Source of the DNA: Deltaproteobacteria bacterium
Lineage (GTDB): Bacteria > Desulfobacterota > DSM-4660 > Desulfatiglandales > HGW-15
DNA length: 41,039 nt
Assembly: GCA_016930835.1 (NCBI GenBank)
Contig: JAFGGA010000010.1
Location: 1-41,039 of the forward strand
Direction of reading: 5' to 3'
The position numbers were made by a program, and so were the translations under genes. This document shows, in pieces, positions 5,341 to 41,039 of the stretch. Each line of letters starts with the position of its first letter. Within the stretch, counting starts at the first letter, position 1. The notes under the pieces were generated by a model. The model was not told the origin of the DNA and ran no database searches. It saw only the letters and a program-made list of their open reading frames with translations.

Positions 5341-6624
5341 TCAACCCTTTCGTTCTTTTATGATCTCGATAAGCGCCTGCAGTTTTAAATCAACCGAGGC
5401 CTCGTTGTAATACCTTGGATCCGTATGGTCCGCTTCAATAACCGCCACCGGTATGCCGTATCTTTTCTCAATCAGCTTGGCCATATCATATTCCTGCATT
5501 GACCATGGACGGCAACTCCTGGGTGAATGGAGGATCGCCCCATCTATTTCATAACCGTCAACATATTCATGGACCTCTTCTCTCATCTTGAAATCAAGCG
5601 TCCTCGTGTAACCCCGGGTGGTCACATTCCAGGCTATAAAGGTTAAAGGATCATCATCGGTCCCGAATCCGTCAGGAGGAAAAAGCCCTCTTGCATGGGG
5701 ACCCACTCCGCCAAAGCCGTAACCTGATGTGGCCAGGCAGATATCCTGGGGCGCCATCCACCTGCTCATCTTACCTACTGCGTACCAGGGAAAATTTCCA
5801 CGCCACATCAATCTGTATTTTTCATCAGGAAGAGCCACAATCCCGTTCTTTACCCTATCCTTTATTTCCAGGAGCATCTCCTCATAAAACTCCACGAGTT
5901 CCTGATTTCTAAGCTGGTTGTAAGGACCCATGGCTATCATCTGGTCGAATGCGCTCATAATAGCCGGTTTTCTTTTACAAAGCTCATCAATCTCAGCACG
6001 GATCTCGGCGATCCTTCTCATTCTTCCGAAAACGATATTATTCAGGGCATCCCAGTTATAAGGCCTGCCCGTGTTCTCTTCGATAAAAGTGATAAAATCT
6101 TGAAGCTGCGACCTGGTGTATTCAACGGTCTTCATGTAGGTCTCATCATCGTCGTCATATATAAAGGGACAGTCAACGCCAAACATGGGGACGTCGAAAA
6201 TGCGTCTCAGACTATCCGCCCATTGGACCATCGCGGGACAGGTGTTTCCGGCCCATATAAAATCCGGCTTGGGCACTCGGTATCTTTCATGATCCTCCCG
6301 CCACTGGCCTTCCACAATATAAAGAGCGGATCCTACGTTAATCCTTGTATAGGAGCAGGTATCCGTCGGCCAGCCCTCTTTTTCCGCCTTATCAATATAA
6401 TACATGTGCTCCTGTCCGGCAGAAATCCTCGCGGCCTGATTTTCGGTATGAAAACTCGCGACATCCTGCGCGGCCAATATCTCAAAAGGACTCGCCCCCA
6501 CACACCAGCAAACCTTTCTGCCTTCAGAGGGGGCCCGCCGAATGTCTTCGTAAAATTTGTCCATCATGCCTGATATTTGTGCCGTGCATTTTAAACGATT
6601 ATATCTTTTGCGCTGTTCTTCCAT
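5341..6624 (-). CDS. 2-hydroxyacyl-CoA dehydratase subunit (HgdB/BcrB-like)
   Basis: The protein belongs to the 2-hydroxyglutaryl-CoA dehydratase/benzoyl-CoA reductase subunit family. These subunits each hold a [4Fe-4S] cluster and, after injection of one high-potential electron by an ATPase activator, dehydrate 2-hydroxyacyl-CoA through ketyl radicals. Family features include CWCVGASPFEIL near residue 39, and likely cluster ligands C90 (TDTCSYTR), C129 (GNTCP) and C371 (PRSCRPW). The C-terminus has VIEADHTDPR, the usual substrate and fold segment. At 427 residues the length is normal. AGGAG precedes the ATG, and two bases separate it from the partner subunit upstream. The substrate cannot be read from sequence. 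Confidence 0.9.
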   Translation of the reverse strand: MEEQRKRYNRLKCTAQISGMMDKFYEDIRRAPSEGRKVCWCVGASPFEILAAQDVASFHTENQAARISAGQEHMYYIDKAEKEGWPTDTCSYTRINVGSALYIVEGQWREDHERYRVPKPDFIWAGNTCPAMVQWADSLRRIFDVPMFGVDCPFIYDDDDETYMKTVEYTRSQLQDFITFIEENTGRPYNWDALNNIVFGRMRRIAEIRAEIDELCKRKPAIMSAFDQMIAMGPYNQLRNQELVEFYEEMLLEIKDRVKNGIVALPDEKYRLMWRGNFPWYAVGKMSRWMAPQDICLATSGYGFGGVGPHARGLFPPDGFGTDDDPLTFIAWNVTTRGYTRTLDFKMREEVHEYVDGYEIDGAILHSPRSCRPWSMQEYDMAKLIEKRYGIPVAVIEADHTDPRYYNEASVDLKLQALIEIIKERKG

Positions 6625-34389: not shown

Positions 34390-35931
34390 TTATAGATTTC
34401 TTTCATCCGCCTTGAGTGATGGATTTCGTTTGAGATAGGCCAGTCTATTCAGGCCATTGATATATGCCTTTGCGCTGGCGGTTATGATATCCGGATCAGT
34501 CCCTTTCCCCAACGCCATCAAACCGTTCTCCTGTAAACGCACGGTCACTTCACCTTGAGCATCCATGCCTCCGCTGATGGATGTTACGGAAAAACGCATT
34601 AACTTGGACTCTGTGCCGGTCATCTTGGCAATAGTGTTATACGTCGCATCTATGGGGCCGACACCGAAACCGGCGTTCTGCATATCCGTTCCCTCGCTCA
34701 ACAACCTGACCGTGGCCGTAGGAACCGTCGCGGTGCCGCTGACGACGTTAAGGTATAGGAGCTGATAGGTATCCGGGATGCGGAGTATCTCTTCGGCGAT
34801 CAGGGCCTCGATATCCTCGTCCAAAAGCTCCTTACGTTTATCCGCCAGTTCTTTAAATTTTAGAAACGCCCGATCCAGTTCATCCGACGTCAGGTCATAT
34901 CCTAATTCATTGAGTCGACTCCTGAATGCGTGCCGGCCGGAGTGTTTCCCAAGGACAATGCGATTCGATGCCAGGCCGATGGTTTCAGGTTCCATAATCT
35001 CATAAGTCATTCTATTCTTCAAGACCCCGTCTTGATGAATACCGGCCTCATGGGCGAACGCGTTGGCCCCAACAACGGCCTTATTGGGCTGAACGACGAT
35101 TCCGGTGATCATGGATACCAACCGGCTGGTTGGATAGATCTCGGTCGTAACAATACCGGTATTGAGGTTAAGGATCCCGCGGCGTGTGTGAAGACTCATG
35201 ACGACTTCTTCCAACGAAGTGTTTCCCGCCCTTTCACCGATACCGTTCAGGGTCACTTCGGCCTGCCGGGCTCCGGCTTTGATCCCGGCCAGGGTATTGG
35301 CCGTGGCCAGACCCAGATCATTATGGCAGTGAACACTAATAACGGCCTTGTTGATATTGGGTGTGTGGGCCCGGACATAGGTCACCAGCTCACCGAATTC
35401 ATCCGGTATGGCATATCCCACCGTATCCGGGATATTCACCGTGATGGCGCCCGCATCAATGACCGCCTCAAAAATTTTACATAGGAAATCCCTATCGCTA
35501 CGTGAGGCGTCTTCCGCTGAGAATTCCACATTATCCGTGAAACCTTTGGCATATCGAACCGATTCAACGGCTGTTTGGATCACTTGTTCACGATCCTTCT
35601 GCAGTTTATGTTTCATATGGATGTCAGAGGTGGCGATAAAGGTGTGAATTCTCGGGTTGGAAGCATCTTTAACCGCGCCCCATGCCTTGTCGATATCCTC
35701 TTTGGATGTCCTGGCCAGACCCGCTACCTGAACATATTTTATCTTTTGACTAATGGCCTGAACCGCCTCAAAATCACCAGGTGATGCGGCCGGGAAGCCT
35801 GCCTCAATCACATCAACTCCCAGTTTCTCGAGCTGAGTGGCGAGACGAATCTTTTCAGCCGTATTCATGCTGGCACCGGGTGATTGCTCCCCATCCCTTA
35901 AAGTTGTATCAAATATGGTTACATGTTCCAT
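34390..35931 (-). CDS. leuA: 2-isopropylmalate synthase
   Basis: LeuA condenses acetyl-CoA with 2-oxoisovalerate, the committed step to leucine. The 513-residue protein has the catalytic TIM barrel (FDTTLRDGEQSPGASM at 7-22, HCHNDLGLATANTLAG near 200, NGIGERAGNTSLEEV near 228) and a C-terminal LeuA dimerisation domain with leucine feedback site (about 375-500). AAGGAGG lies eight bases before the ATG. It is the first gene of the leu-ilv operon and lies 374 bp downstream of an attenuator terminator and leucine leader peptide, which makes transcription attenuation by leucine supply likely. Confidence 0.96.
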   Translation of the reverse strand: MEHVTIFDTTLRDGEQSPGASMNTAEKIRLATQLEKLGVDVIEAGFPAASPGDFEAVQAISQKIKYVQVAGLARTSKEDIDKAWGAVKDASNPRIHTFIATSDIHMKHKLQKDREQVIQTAVESVRYAKGFTDNVEFSAEDASRSDRDFLCKIFEAVIDAGAITVNIPDTVGYAIPDEFGELVTYVRAHTPNINKAVISVHCHNDLGLATANTLAGIKAGARQAEVTLNGIGERAGNTSLEEVVMSLHTRRGILNLNTGIVTTEIYPTSRLVSMITGIVVQPNKAVVGANAFAHEAGIHQDGVLKNRMTYEIMEPETIGLASNRIVLGKHSGRHAFRSRLNELGYDLTSDELDRAFLKFKELADKRKELLDEDIEALIAEEILRIPDTYQLLYLNVVSGTATVPTATVRLLSEGTDMQNAGFGVGPIDATYNTIAKMTGTESKLMRFSVTSISGGMDAQGEVTVRLQENGLMALGKGTDPDIITASAKAYINGLNRLAYLKRNPSLKADERNL

Positions 35932-36304
35932 GAGAAAAACCTCCTTATATAGTGAAAATGGAATTGGATAAGAATCTTTACTTAGAACGAATCCATACGC
36001 AAATGTCTTTCATCTGCGCAACGACCGCGATATTCCGCCACCAGCGGAAGATTGAAGACGAAAAATTGGCTGACAGCTCTTTGCGGATCGCTGGTCGCTC
36101 CACTATATAAGGACCCTCCACGGATCCCTCATCCGGGGATCAGTGGTGTATTTCTCCTCTTGAAAAAAAATGTTGATCATGACTATTACCTGACTTTGAA
36201 ATCGGATATATAAGATATGTTTCTTATATTCCCTACTCAAGATGACTACTTGGTTTGATGTCTTTGATACGATAATATAGGCGGATTTTCCACACCCGCA
36301 AACA
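35932..36304 (-). other. 373-base segment between attenuator and leuA, no gene seen
   Basis: On the minus strand this untranslated stretch contains short hairpins (GATCCC...GGGATC near 36124-36142; CCGC-TGGT-GCGG near 36034-36045) and only one short frame (start at 36180, MINIFFQEEKY...) without a good ribosome site. I tested it for a T-box core and found no convincing match. It may hold a second regulatory layer or a secondary promoter. Confidence 0.4.
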
Positions 36305-36342
36305 AAAAATCCGTTATCAGATTGACCTGATAACGGATTTTT
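36305..36342 (-). terminator. intrinsic terminator of the leu attenuator
   Basis: Perfect 16-base arms (36305-36320 and 36327-36342) around a 6-base loop form an AAAAATCCGTTATCAG/CTGATAACGGATTTTT hairpin with a T run on both strands. On the minus strand the 5' arm contains TTATCAGG (36333-36326), which can pair instead with CCTGATAA at 36377-36370 at the leader-peptide stop codon. That mutually exclusive pairing identifies it as an attenuator rather than a plain terminator. Confidence 0.88.
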
Positions 36343-36372
36343 ATGATTTATTTTAGGTGTACTATCGCATTA

Positions 36373-36483
36373 TCAGGGCCTTTGGCTGCCTTCTACGACC
36401 AAAAGATCGAGCAAGAGGAGCAAATCTACGCCGCTTACTCTGATTTCCCTGATAATACCATCTATGTCATTTTTCCGTATCAT
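36373..36483 (-). CDS. leuL: leu operon leader peptide (36 aa)
   Basis: A 36-codon frame starts at the ATG at 36483 and stops at TGA (36375-36373). Its second half reads DLLLLLDLLVVEG: seven Leu and two Val codons within eleven, plus Ile codons earlier (GII, EI). Such codon runs sense charged leucine (and possibly valine and isoleucine) tRNA. The stop codon lies inside the antiterminator segment CCCTGATAA, so a ribosome reaching the stop would cover it and allow the downstream terminator to form. The ribosome site is weak (AGAAG about 9 bases upstream). The mechanism is inferred from the layout, which matches the enterobacterial leu and ilv leaders; the peptide sequence itself is not one I recognise. 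Confidence 0.85.
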   Translation of the reverse strand: MIRKNDIDGIIREIRVSGVDLLLLLDLLVVEGSQRP

Positions 36484-36502
36484 TGTGATTTTTCTTCTAT
36501 TA

Positions 36503-36549
36503 CTCCCGAATTCGGGAGGTATATTTTCAAAAAAAAATTTAAATGTCAA
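36503..36549 (-). promoter_or_regulatory. predicted leu operon promoter with overlapping palindrome
   Basis: On the minus strand TTGACA (36549-36544) is followed after 18 bp by AATATA (36525-36520), a plausible sigma-70 promoter with a T-rich spacer. A perfect 16-bp palindrome CTCCCGAATTCGGGAG (36503-36518) directly follows, overlapping the expected start point; it may be an operator or a 5' stabilising stem. The leader peptide begins about 30 bases downstream, a normal distance. Confidence 0.7.
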
Positions 36550-36603: not shown

Positions 36604-36688
36604 ACCGTATCCATCCGGAAGTGCCCGCAAACACCTACCCCGAAACCTCCTCCCTTTGAGGGAGGGGGCATTCCCGGGTGGATACGGT
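36604..36688. repeat. 85-bp nested inverted repeat
   Basis: Outer arms ACCGTATCCATCCGG (36604-36618) and CCGGGTGGATACGGT (36674-36688) differ at one position. The inner hairpin is CCTCCCTTTGAGGGAGG. The same plan is seen at 26052-26123, and the CATCCGGAA...GGATACGGT words recur at 39375-39415. The rest of 36550-36891 contains no gene that I can support. Confidence 0.7.
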
Positions 36689-36891
36689 TCAAGGGCAAAC
36701 CATTCGAAAGCATGGGACGCAAAACTACTGGCCTAACGCCTTGGTTTGAAAAGGATACGGTAGCAGGGTTACCTAACCGGTCATGTTCGAGCCGCAGATA
36801 GATAAACGCATCCCGCCTCAAAACCGTTTTCCCGCATGCCCATGAAGATTGCCCTATATCGGATAACCCCTAAGAATGAAAGGAAAACACC

Positions 36892-37248
36892 ATGATCTCT
36901 TCAATCAGTAGCAGCCTGTCCTCCCTGGATGCCTTTGGCGCCAAGATGGATGTGACCGCAAACAATGTCGCCAATGTGGAATCAGAAGGATTCAAAAAGA
37001 GCCGGGCCGACCTTGCGGAAGGCCCTAACGGCGCTGTTGAGGTGGAGATAAGCCGGGTTGATTCCCCGGGGAGCTTGGTCTATGAGGAAGATAGCGATGG
37101 TCAGATGGTTGAAAAGGAGCTTTCCAATGTAGATCTGACTGAAGAGATTCCCCAGACCATTATAGCTCAGAGGGGATACGAAGCGAATCTCAAACTGATA
37201 GCCACCCGGGACGACATGTTAGGGTCGGTCTTGGATATCTTAGGGTAA
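36892..37248 (+). CDS. flagellar basal-body rod protein, FlgC-like (short)
   Basis: The 118-residue protein has the rod/hook N-terminal motif (SSLSSLDAFGAKMDVTANNVANVESEGFKKSR region, with the ANNVANV hallmark at residues 24-30) and the C-terminal rod helix (QTIIAQRGYEANLKLIATRDDMLGSVLDILG region). It has the FlgC-type plan without the large middle domain of FlgE or FlgG, and is somewhat shorter than usual FlgC (about 130-140). AAGGA lies nine bases before the ATG. It stands alone rather than within a flagellar rod operon, upstream of two MotB-like genes, so it may be a stand-alone paralogue. Confidence 0.8.
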   Translation: MISSISSSLSSLDAFGAKMDVTANNVANVESEGFKKSRADLAEGPNGAVEVEISRVDSPGSLVYEEDSDGQMVEKELSNVDLTEEIPQTIIAQRGYEANLKLIATRDDMLGSVLDILG

Positions 37249-39007: not shown

Positions 39008-39210
39008 ATCGTTTTCCTTTACACATTAACGTTTATGGGTTTCCATCCTCCGTTCGTCACACCAAAACGAGGCGGGGGACATACAAGCCATCTGTAATGA
39101 ACTGGCAGCCAAAGCCATTGGTGTCCAAAATAGATTCAATTTGAGCTTTTTGCTTATTTCACTGATTGTTTTTCAGGAATGTCCATCACAGGTTTCATTT
39201 CATAATAATA

Positions 39211-39366
39211 CTTCCTCCCCTTGCGGGAGGGGTTAGGAGGTCCTAAACAGACAGACGTATATATGAAATTTCCCCTCCCCTCGCGGGAGGGGTTAGGGGG
39301 TCCTAAACAGACAGACGTATATATGAAATTTCCCCTCCCCTCGCGGGAGGGGTTAGGGGAGGGGGT
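39211..39366. repeat. 60-bp tandem repeat with CCCC/GGGG hairpins
   Basis: Two exact-looking 60-bp units (39241-39300 and 39301-39360), each TCCTAAACAGACAGACGTAT followed by ATATGAAATTTCCC and a CTCCCCTCGCGGGAGGGG hairpin, are preceded by a further half unit at 39211-39240 that carries only the hairpin. The near-identity of the units indicates recent duplication. The array lies between a plus-strand MotB gene and a minus-strand gene (39008-39421), a spacer with no other supported gene. Confidence 0.85.
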
Positions 39367-39421
39367 GAATACCTCCATCCGGAAATGCGTCCTTACCTCC
39401 GAATGGATACGGTATCGTATT

Positions 39422-40456
39422 TTAGATCCTTCCACCCCCCCTGCTAAAACTGCTTCCGGCCCAAGCAGGCCGTCCGGCCTCATCTCTCAAAACGACCGAT
39501 TTCCCACCCGTTTCGATAGTTGTTACCGATAAATCCGTACCGTATAAATAGCCGCTCACAATGGCCTGAGCACCATCAACCAACACCAGACCCCGAGTAT
39601 TTCGATAACCACTCGGCCCCATGTGGATCTCATAAAGTGTTTCGCCGACCTTCAGTTCCCATTCATCTCCTTTTTGCACCAATTCACCCGTCAAGGTTTC
39701 CGGCTTTCCCATGCCGACAAAATCCCTGCCCTTCAATGTTTCAGAGGATTGAGGCCTGACATCGGCCCTTGCTTCAGGACGAATGGGATCATATGGGTTC
39801 AACATCTGTCCCCTGCCTTGACCGCGTCCCGCGGCCTGTTCATTATTATTGTGTTGCTCATTATAAAATTGACTGCTCCTTCCGCGACCACCCCTGTTTT
39901 CGGATTGCATGATGTCGTTTCCCGCGGGGTAAGCCTGGGGGGTTGTCCAACGGCCTCCTCCTCGCCGCGATGTGAGTAATTCACTTTCACCATGAGTCGA
40001 TTGAGCCCAATAACCTCCTGGATTTGCAGCCAAATCACTATTTTTTTCCCAACTGAGTTTGGCATCTCTGCCCAGATCCATCACCGAGCTGAAAGGTGGA
40101 ATATTCCAGATTGTCCCGGCGAACACCAGCACGACAATGGCAGAAGCTACGATGAATTCGCGTTTAAGATTGAACGAACTATGGAGCTTATTCCAGAAAA
40201 AGTGCACCACAACCCGCCAGTTAAAGTAGAGGTGCAGGCCGATGACGATCAGCAGCAAATAGCCGAACACCGTGTGAATGGCTGCCCATTCATGCTTATC
40301 CAGACCCCACAGGGTCCAATTATTCCAATTGGCAAACCTTCCCATTGGTGTGATGTAAAGGATCACCCCGGATACGATCTCCACCAGGATCCCCAGAACC
40401 AGCATAAAAGTCGCCAACCCTCTCCATTTGAAACCTTTTTTATGATCATTTGCCAT
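39422..40456 (-). CDS. DUF4405-type membrane protein with RG-rich linker and C-terminal beta domain
   Basis: Residues 1-120 have three membrane helices (about 12-36, 58-79, 100-117) with His at 55, 61, 75 and 85, the layout of DUF4405/cytochrome b-like proteins that may bind heme. Residues about 120-160 are periplasmic; 160-235 are low-complexity, rich in Arg, Gly, Gln and Asn (NRGGRGRSS, RGQGRGQ). Residues about 240-335 are beta-rich (GELVQKGDEWELKVGETLYEIHMG, quoted in part), similar to small nucleotide-free beta domains found fused to such membrane parts. AAGGAGG lies nine bases before the ATG. No redox partner lies next to it. A role in membrane electron transfer is inferred. Confidence 0.75.
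   Translation of the reverse strand: MANDHKKGFKWRGLATFMLVLGILVEIVSGVILYITPMGRFANWNNWTLWGLDKHEWAAIHTVFGYLLLIVIGLHLYFNWRVVVHFFWNKLHSSFNLKREFIVASAIVVLVFAGTIWNIPPFSSVMDLGRDAKLSWEKNSDLAANPGGYWAQSTHGESELLTSRRGGGRWTTPQAYPAGNDIMQSENRGGRGRSSQFYNEQHNNNEQAAGRGQGRGQMLNPYDPIRPEARADVRPQSSETLKGRDFVGMGKPETLTGELVQKGDEWELKVGETLYEIHMGPSGYRNTRGLVLVDGAQAIVSGYLYGTDLSVTTIETGGKSVVLRDEAGRPAWAGSSFSRGGGRI

Positions 40457-40963: not shown

Positions 40964-41039
<76 letters not shown>

What the first reader, a model, noticed from the sequence alone, without database searches (positions are those of the whole stretch)
36305..36549. Unannotated leucine leader peptide and four-segment attenuator before leuACD-ilvBNC
Seen: a 36-codon frame with DLLLLLDLLVV, a promoter about 30 bases upstream, and a perfect terminator hairpin 30 bases after the stop. 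Four copies of complementary words line up as in classical attenuators: TTATCAGG (segment 1, 36455-36448, inside the coding part), CCTGATAA (segment 2, 36377-36370, over the stop codon), TTATCAGG (segment 3, 36333-36326) and CTGATAAC (segment 4, 36320-36313). Segments 1-2, 2-3 and 3-4 can all pair. Known: leu, ilv and trp leaders work this way in enterobacteria. Inference: ribosome stalling at the Leu codons leaves segment 2 free to pair with 3 (read-through); arrival at the stop covers segment 2 and allows 3-4 (termination). The operon includes the ilv genes too, so leucine would control the shared pathway.
Basis: partly seen in the sequence, partly recalled or inferred. Interest (0 to 1): 0.85.

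Follow-up and report, generated by a model that had tools for sequence, protein, structure and literature searches.

The report
Leucine attenuator plus RBS-sequestering second leader
A bacterium related to sulfate reducers appears to read its own leucine supply with a tiny translated leader whose terminator can stop the leucine/valine operon; the same switch recurs in its phylum with the sensing codons changed to match the gene it controls, and a second RNA element before leuA seems to hide that gene's ribosome-binding site.

Summary
On the - strand lie a 36-codon leader, four mutually complementary words and a 16-17 bp terminator before leuACD-ilvBNC (fold z -6.6). It is best explained as a ribosome-mediated transcription attenuator. 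A covariance model built from 60 relatives finds it in 70 of 85 genomes of the same class and in 30 sampled genomes elsewhere in the phylum, mostly before branched-chain amino acid genes. Exact TTGACA precedes 63 of 66 leaders (control stretch 2 of 66). The 1:2, inner and 3:4 helices covary; the 2:3 antiterminator coevolves (0 of 20,000 partner shuffles). Regulatory codons track the first gene: Ile before cimA, Ile+Leu before cimA-leuA, Leu (+Val) before leuA, Val/Ile before ilvB or ilvD. The window's genome has two copies: Leu-rich here, Ile-rich before cimA. Corrections: Val and Ile codons are present too, and a ribosome stalled at the Leu run does not cover segment 1. Missed: between attenuator and leuA lies a second conserved element (36180-36100; 35 of 85 genomes, just 5' of leuA) with a covarying hairpin, an always-open short frame and a word pairing with leuA's ribosome-binding site (0 of 20,000 shuffles). 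No Rfam family matches either. No expression data exist.

The parts
36521..36549 (-). Promoter: -35 TTGACA 36549-36544, weak -10-like AAATAT 36526-36521 (17 nt spacing)
   Evidence: Sequence; exact TTGACA upstream of 63/66 homologous leaders, 2/66 in control stretch; not called by the consensus scan
36373..36483 (-). Leader ORF, 36 codons + TGA, with Leu run codons 21-25 (36423-36409), Leu-Leu 27-28, Val-Val 29-30, Ile codons 10, 11, 14
   Evidence: orthologue MIRIHQNIYSITSNSRVELLLLLSLLVVKGKPPGLMME in G009
36448..36455 (-). Segment 1 (TTATCAGG, Ile-Ile-Arg codons); pairs with segment 2
   Evidence: MFE fold; helix P1 of A1 88.5% paired across 60 leaders
36370..36377 (-). Segment 2 (CCTGATAA), contains the stop codon; extends to CCTGATAATG
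   Evidence: Pairs with 1 and 3; 2:3 helix 97.8% of cells paired; coevolves with segment 3
36326..36333 (-). Segment 3 (TTATCAGG), shared by antiterminator and terminator
36313..36320 (-). Segment 4 (CTGATAAC)
36305..36342 (-). Intrinsic terminator AAAAATCCGTTATCAG-GTCAAT-CTGATAACGGATTTTT followed by T-rich tail
36103..36180 (-). Second short reading frame (uORF2) MINIFFQEEKYTTDPRMRDPWRVLI, TAG 36105-36103
   Evidence: Homologous frame open in 27/27 loci against 16 and 14 for the other frames
36118..36146 (-). Conserved hairpin of the second element, CCACTGATCCC / GGGATCCGTGG
   Evidence: 7 of 12 pairs with changes on both sides; covariation above all 500 shuffles
36100..36113 (-). Anti-SD word (TCCTTATATAGTGG), overlaps the end of uORF2 (Val-Leu-Ile-stop)
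   Evidence: Pairs with 35955-35942 in the unforced MFE; own vs swapped partners 0/20,000
35942..35955 (-). leuA Shine-Dalgarno region (TCACTATATAAGGA), partner of the anti-SD word
34390..35931 (-). leuA, 2-isopropylmalate synthase
   Evidence: TIGR00973 735 bits
33110..34369 (-). leuC
   Evidence: TIGR02083
32609..33094 (-). leuD
   Evidence: TIGR02084
30870..32564 (-). ilvB
   Evidence: TIGR00118
30248..30751 (-). ilvN
   Evidence: TIGR00119
28961..30049 (-). ilvC
   Evidence: TIGR00465

Best explanation
The region is a ribosome-mediated transcription attenuator of the leuACD-ilvBNC operon. Transcription starts near 36514 and a ribosome translates the 36-codon leader behind RNA polymerase. 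If charged Leu-tRNA (also Val-tRNA, and Ile-tRNA for the codons in segment 1) is scarce, the ribosome stalls before the stop codon. That prevents the 1:2 domain, segment 2 pairs with segment 3, and polymerase reads into leuA. If the tRNAs are charged, the ribosome reaches the stop codon inside segment 2, covers it, and segments 3 and 4 form the terminator. With no ribosome, 1:2 also favours termination. Shown: the anatomy, its conservation, covariation and codon tracking. Inferred: the transcription start, stalling, and the size of the effect. Downstream, a second element probably hides the leuA ribosome-binding site until uORF2 is translated or a ribosome stalls on it (pairing shown by coevolution; signal and effect inferred).
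For: Strong fold, z -6.6. R1 finds the element in 70/85 genomes of the class and in 30 sampled genomes outside it, while among 80 leuA loci from many lineages only class members score below E 0.01. Covariation of 1:2, inner hairpin and terminator: 75 cells with changes on both sides vs 21 expected, 0/500. Antiterminator 97.8% paired, changes mostly wobble-tolerated; it coevolves with the terminator word outside the class, own -12.2 vs swapped -10.5 kcal/mol, 0/20,000. Codon content follows the first gene: leuA-first 6.8 Leu/3.8 Ile; cimA-first without leuA 8.3 Ile/2.5 Leu/0.7 Val; ilvB-first 4.8 Val; permutation p 0.00005-0.0013. The own genome has two copies, Leu-rich (leuA) and Ile-rich (cimA). 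Stall calculation: 2:3 forms with probability near 1 for stalls at any Leu/Val codon and 0.16-0.25 at Gln34 to the stop if the ribosome is a barrier. Conserved TTGACA.
Against: No transcript or expression data. If pairs spanning the stalled ribosome are allowed, the computed antiterminator probability for the window is 0.72 for stalls at Leu and 0.72 with no ribosome, so the equilibrium model alone does not discriminate. The -10 is weak. In several leuA and ilvB leaders the inner hairpin is not conserved. Most genomes are assemblies from metagenomes.
Confidence: 0.93

Rival explanations
1. The repeated TTATCAGG/CCTGATAA words are DNA operator sites of a transcription factor, and the leader peptide is incidental.
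For: The word is exactly kept in 61 of 85 class genomes, and palindromic.
Against: The T tail and the position after a BCAA-rich frame are kept; in other genomes the words change while pairing is kept (CCGCTGCCAG/CTGGCAGCGG, CCGTTTTCAGG/CCTGAAAACGG); leader codons change with the regulated gene. A protein site would not require this.
Confidence: 0.03
2. Simple constitutive terminator with a non-regulatory short ORF; leuA has its own promoter downstream of the hairpin.
For: leuA starts 373 nt downstream of the hairpin; no transcript mapping exists.
Against: No sigma-70-like site was found between hairpin and leuA; alternative 1:2 and 2:3 helices coevolve; in G016 the distance to leuA is only 53 nt.
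Confidence: 0.04
3. For the second element (36180-36100): a purely structural RNA or processing site unrelated to leucine; the open frame is a by-product of the conserved hairpin.
For: Variability is equal at all three codon positions, so the peptide itself is not selected; only Val-Leu is fixed at its end.
Against: The homologous frame is open in 27/27 against 16 and 14 in the other frames, nearly always with an upstream ATG; the word pairs with the leuA SD region and coevolves with it; hits lie 5' of leuA.
Confidence: 0.35

Closest known systems
Enterobacterial leu/ilv/thr leader attenuators (Rfam Leu_leader RF00512 and kin; Vitreschak et al. 2004, cited in PMC1262725)
   Same: Leader peptide with runs of the end-product codons, four alternating segments, stop codon in segment 2, intrinsic terminator before the first gene (own knowledge of these leaders).
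   Different: No match to the Rfam models; one shared 8-10 nt word used four times; one scaffold carries Ile, Leu or Val codons according to the gene; a further covarying hairpin lies inside the leader frame of most class copies.
Actinobacterial LEU element before leuA (PMC1262725)
   Same: Like the second element here: an upstream ORF whose Leu codon region pairs with the leuA Shine-Dalgarno sequence.
   Different: No Leu run (fixed Val-Leu only); a 12-bp hairpin and AGRGUCCUU; pseudoknot not tested; different phylum; sequence similarity not tested.
Actinobacterial/Corynebacterium ilvB leaders (PMC1262725, PMC11857589)
   Same: Mixed Ile/Val/Leu leader peptide with terminator.
   Different: Different taxa; in Streptomyces codon substitutions reportedly had no effect (PMC1262725).

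Membership tests
Ribosome-mediated (classical) transcription attenuator | Short leader frame with regulatory codons for the operon's product | tested here: met
   (translation itself not measured)
Ribosome-mediated (classical) transcription attenuator | Intrinsic terminator between leader and first gene | tested here: met
Ribosome-mediated (classical) transcription attenuator | Mutually exclusive antiterminator sharing a terminator arm | tested here: met
Ribosome-mediated (classical) transcription attenuator | 1:2 pause/protector helix, with stop codon placed to mask segment 2 | tested here: met
   stop TGA 36375-36373 lies in segment 2; but a Leu-stalled ribosome does not cover segment 1
Ribosome-mediated (classical) transcription attenuator | Expression changes with amino acid supply through termination | not testable with these tools
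   No expression data
Rfam Leu_leader RF00512 | Match to the covariance model | tested here: not met
   No match at gathering score or up to E 5
Actinobacterial LEU element (for the second element) | Upstream ORF with a run of Leu codons | tested here: not met
   Fixed codons are Val-Leu; no run
Actinobacterial LEU element (for the second element) | uORF codon region pairs with the leuA SD | tested here: met
Actinobacterial LEU element (for the second element) | Conserved pseudoknot | not tested

The most novel reading that the evidence does not exclude
leuA in this lineage is under two stacked ribosome-based leucine sensors: a transcription attenuator whose codon specificity has been retuned more than once (Ile, Leu, Val) after operon splits, and a translational attenuator in which the Val-Leu codons of a second leader are themselves part of the anti-Shine-Dalgarno word, so that a ribosome stalled there exposes the leuA ribosome-binding site.
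Probability: 0.35. Interest if true: 0.72.

Novelty: new variant of a known kind. Interest (0 to 1): 0.6.

Why it matters
It extends four-segment attenuation to a lineage where I found no report of it in the papers held. It offers a natural series in which one RNA scaffold carries different sensing codons to fit the gene, so the codon-to-gene logic can be tested by comparison. It also adds a candidate leuA translational control element that a covariance model can now find. If confirmed, leader codon content would predict pathway roles (for example acyl-CoA dehydrogenase/ETF and VorB operons under Ile/Leu leaders) in uncultivated relatives of sulfate reducers.

Tried and rejected
Literature searches for this attenuator in delta-proteobacteria/Desulfo found nothing specific; the key comparative papers (Vitreschak 2004, Lopatovskaya 2010) were not read here, so prior prediction cannot be excluded. 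Covariation of the 2:3 helix on A1 was uninformative because genomes had been picked by a fixed seg3/4 pattern; a partner-swap test on the wider set was used instead. A DNA-operator reading of the repeated word was rejected on compensatory changes. A peptide-selection reading of uORF2 (AADS...LRRVL) was rejected: no third-position excess of variation, and R-to-W changes that keep the hairpin. Pairing of the purine-rich 5' flank of the second element with the stretch between SD and ATG was not supported across relatives (own -6.18 vs -5.71, 1,900/20,000), although the window folds that way.

Full report
Observation. The leader RNA folds far better than shuffles (-66.1 against -41.7, sd 3.7; z -6.6). 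The MFE already contains the 1:2 helix and the terminator. NCBIfam confirms leuA, leuC, leuD, ilvB, ilvN and ilvC downstream. The promoter has a perfect -35 but a weak -10.

Who has it. The window is contig C199 of an assembly of 4.7 Mb in 224 contigs. Its class, as held here, is a single order of 85 genomes. Contig lengths suggest Desulfatiglandales (G012's contig has the length of L008's, titled 'Desulfatiglandales bacterium'); that name is an inference. The closest relative, G009, has the orthologous leader MIRIHQNIYSITSNSRVELLLLLSLLVVKGKPPGLMME and the same terminator word before the same operon. G016 has MNINTINIISGNAVEVLPVVVNLLVLGVYRRA and G008 differs by one residue. A fixed hairpin pattern is present in 61/85 class genomes with no match to the reversed control pattern. 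The model R1, built from 60 leaders, finds 70/85 in the class and 46/395 in a phylum sample, 30 of them outside the class. Among 80 named leuA loci from many phyla only class members score below E 0.01; the flanks held there do not always reach an upstream operon start.

What it controls. Genes directly downstream were identified with the window's proteins and with Pfam/NCBIfam. They are cimA followed by leuA (most class members), cimA alone, leuA alone, ilvB, and in other classes ilvD-ilvB, ilvB or cimA. In some class members they are an acyl-CoA dehydrogenase with ETF, or a VorB-type 2-oxoacid:ferredoxin oxidoreductase cluster. Leader codons follow the gene: cimA without leuA, Ile 8.3, Leu 2.5, Val 0.7; cimA-leuA, Ile 5.7, Leu 8.0; leuA first, Leu 6.8, Ile 3.8, Val 3.5; ilvB first, Val 4.8. 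Permutation p values run from 0.00005 to 0.0013; they treat related leaders as independent and the groups were assigned by hand. The window's genome carries both a Leu-rich copy (leuA, here) and an Ile-rich copy (cimA, G000:C187, MLINLTTINIIIIITAAGIIGSSLLLGYIMERRRLPGLIRA). The same split occurs in G079 of another family, which suggests it happened more than once; no tree was built.

Structure. On A1 the three nested helices together show 75 cells with changes on both sides against 21 expected (0/500 shuffles), most clearly in a hairpin inside the leader frame. The antiterminator is paired in 97.8% of cells. To test it beyond the selection pattern, the terminator arm of each leader was paired with its own or other leaders' upstream region. 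Own is better for all 111 leaders (-12.65 vs -11.66, sd 0.13), for 23 outside the class (-12.23 vs -10.45, sd 0.47; both 0/20,000), and for 18 with changed words (20/20,000).

Mechanism. A footprint model gives a near-certain 2:3 helix while a ribosome acting as barrier sits on any Leu or Val codon of the window leader, and 16-25% when it is at Gln34 to the stop. Two cautions: pairs spanning a stalled ribosome, if allowed, bring this to 72%, the same as with no ribosome; and a Leu-stalled ribosome does not cover segment 1. The Ile codons, by contrast, lie in segment 1 itself. Kinetics were not modelled.

A second element. Between terminator and leuA, a covarying hairpin followed by GGAGRGTCCTT occurs in 35/85 class genomes (R2). 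Where the leuA position is known the hits lie just 5' of leuA, whether leuA opens the operon or follows cimA. Two genomes outside the class gave weak hits (E 0.0005-0.008) that were not followed. In the window TCCTTATATAGTGG (36113-36100) pairs with the leuA SD region (35955-35942) in the unforced MFE. Across 30 loci own pairing averages -14.06 against -10.73 (sd 0.54) for swapped partners, 0/20,000 (three of the 30 are doubtful motif matches). 22 of 26 MFEs contain the pairing. A short frame through the hairpin and anti-SD word is open in 27/27 against 16 and 14 for the other frames. In the window it ends Val-Leu-Ile-stop inside the anti-SD helix. I infer that translation of uORF2, or stalling on it, exposes the SD. 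This resembles in principle the actinobacterial LEU element (PMC1262725), without the Leu run. Rfam has no match.

Verdict. The attenuator is very probably real and classical in mechanism, a new family within a known kind, with unusually clear codon retuning. The second element is the less expected find and deserves an experiment. No function has been measured.

Noticed in passing
window 36180-36100 (-), with 35955-35942: Second conserved leuA 5' element: short frame, covarying hairpin and anti-Shine-Dalgarno word; in 35/85 class genomes by model R2, before leuA.
   Followed up: yes
G000:C187:67727-67905 (L203, L131): The window's genome has a second copy of the attenuator, Ile-rich, about 29 nt before cimA on another contig.
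   Followed up: yes
L226 (G052), L227 (G028), L228 (G043), L289 (G034), L290 (G024): The same Ile/Leu attenuator precedes acyl-CoA dehydrogenase genes (with ETF genes next in G052 and G043), suggesting a role of these in branched-chain amino acid supply.
   Followed up: partly
L225 (G044:C13:5268-5445 and 6038-6215, -): Two attenuator copies in tandem, about 770 nt apart, before a P-loop protein and a VorB-type 2-oxoacid:ferredoxin oxidoreductase cluster; the outer one has lost its Leu run (TRPFYPWLVPM).
   Followed up: partly
window 36684-36776 (+): c-di-GMP-I riboswitch (69.5 bits) divergent from the leu operon, upstream of a 118-aa flagellar rod/hook-like protein (36892-37248) with Flg_bbr_C.
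   Followed up: no
window 40964-41032 (-): Group II intron match at the contig end (56.7 bits).
   Followed up: no
window 39154-39532: Tandem repeat between genes, seen as repeated SREGRGNFIYTSVCLGPPNP in a probably spurious frame.
   Followed up: no
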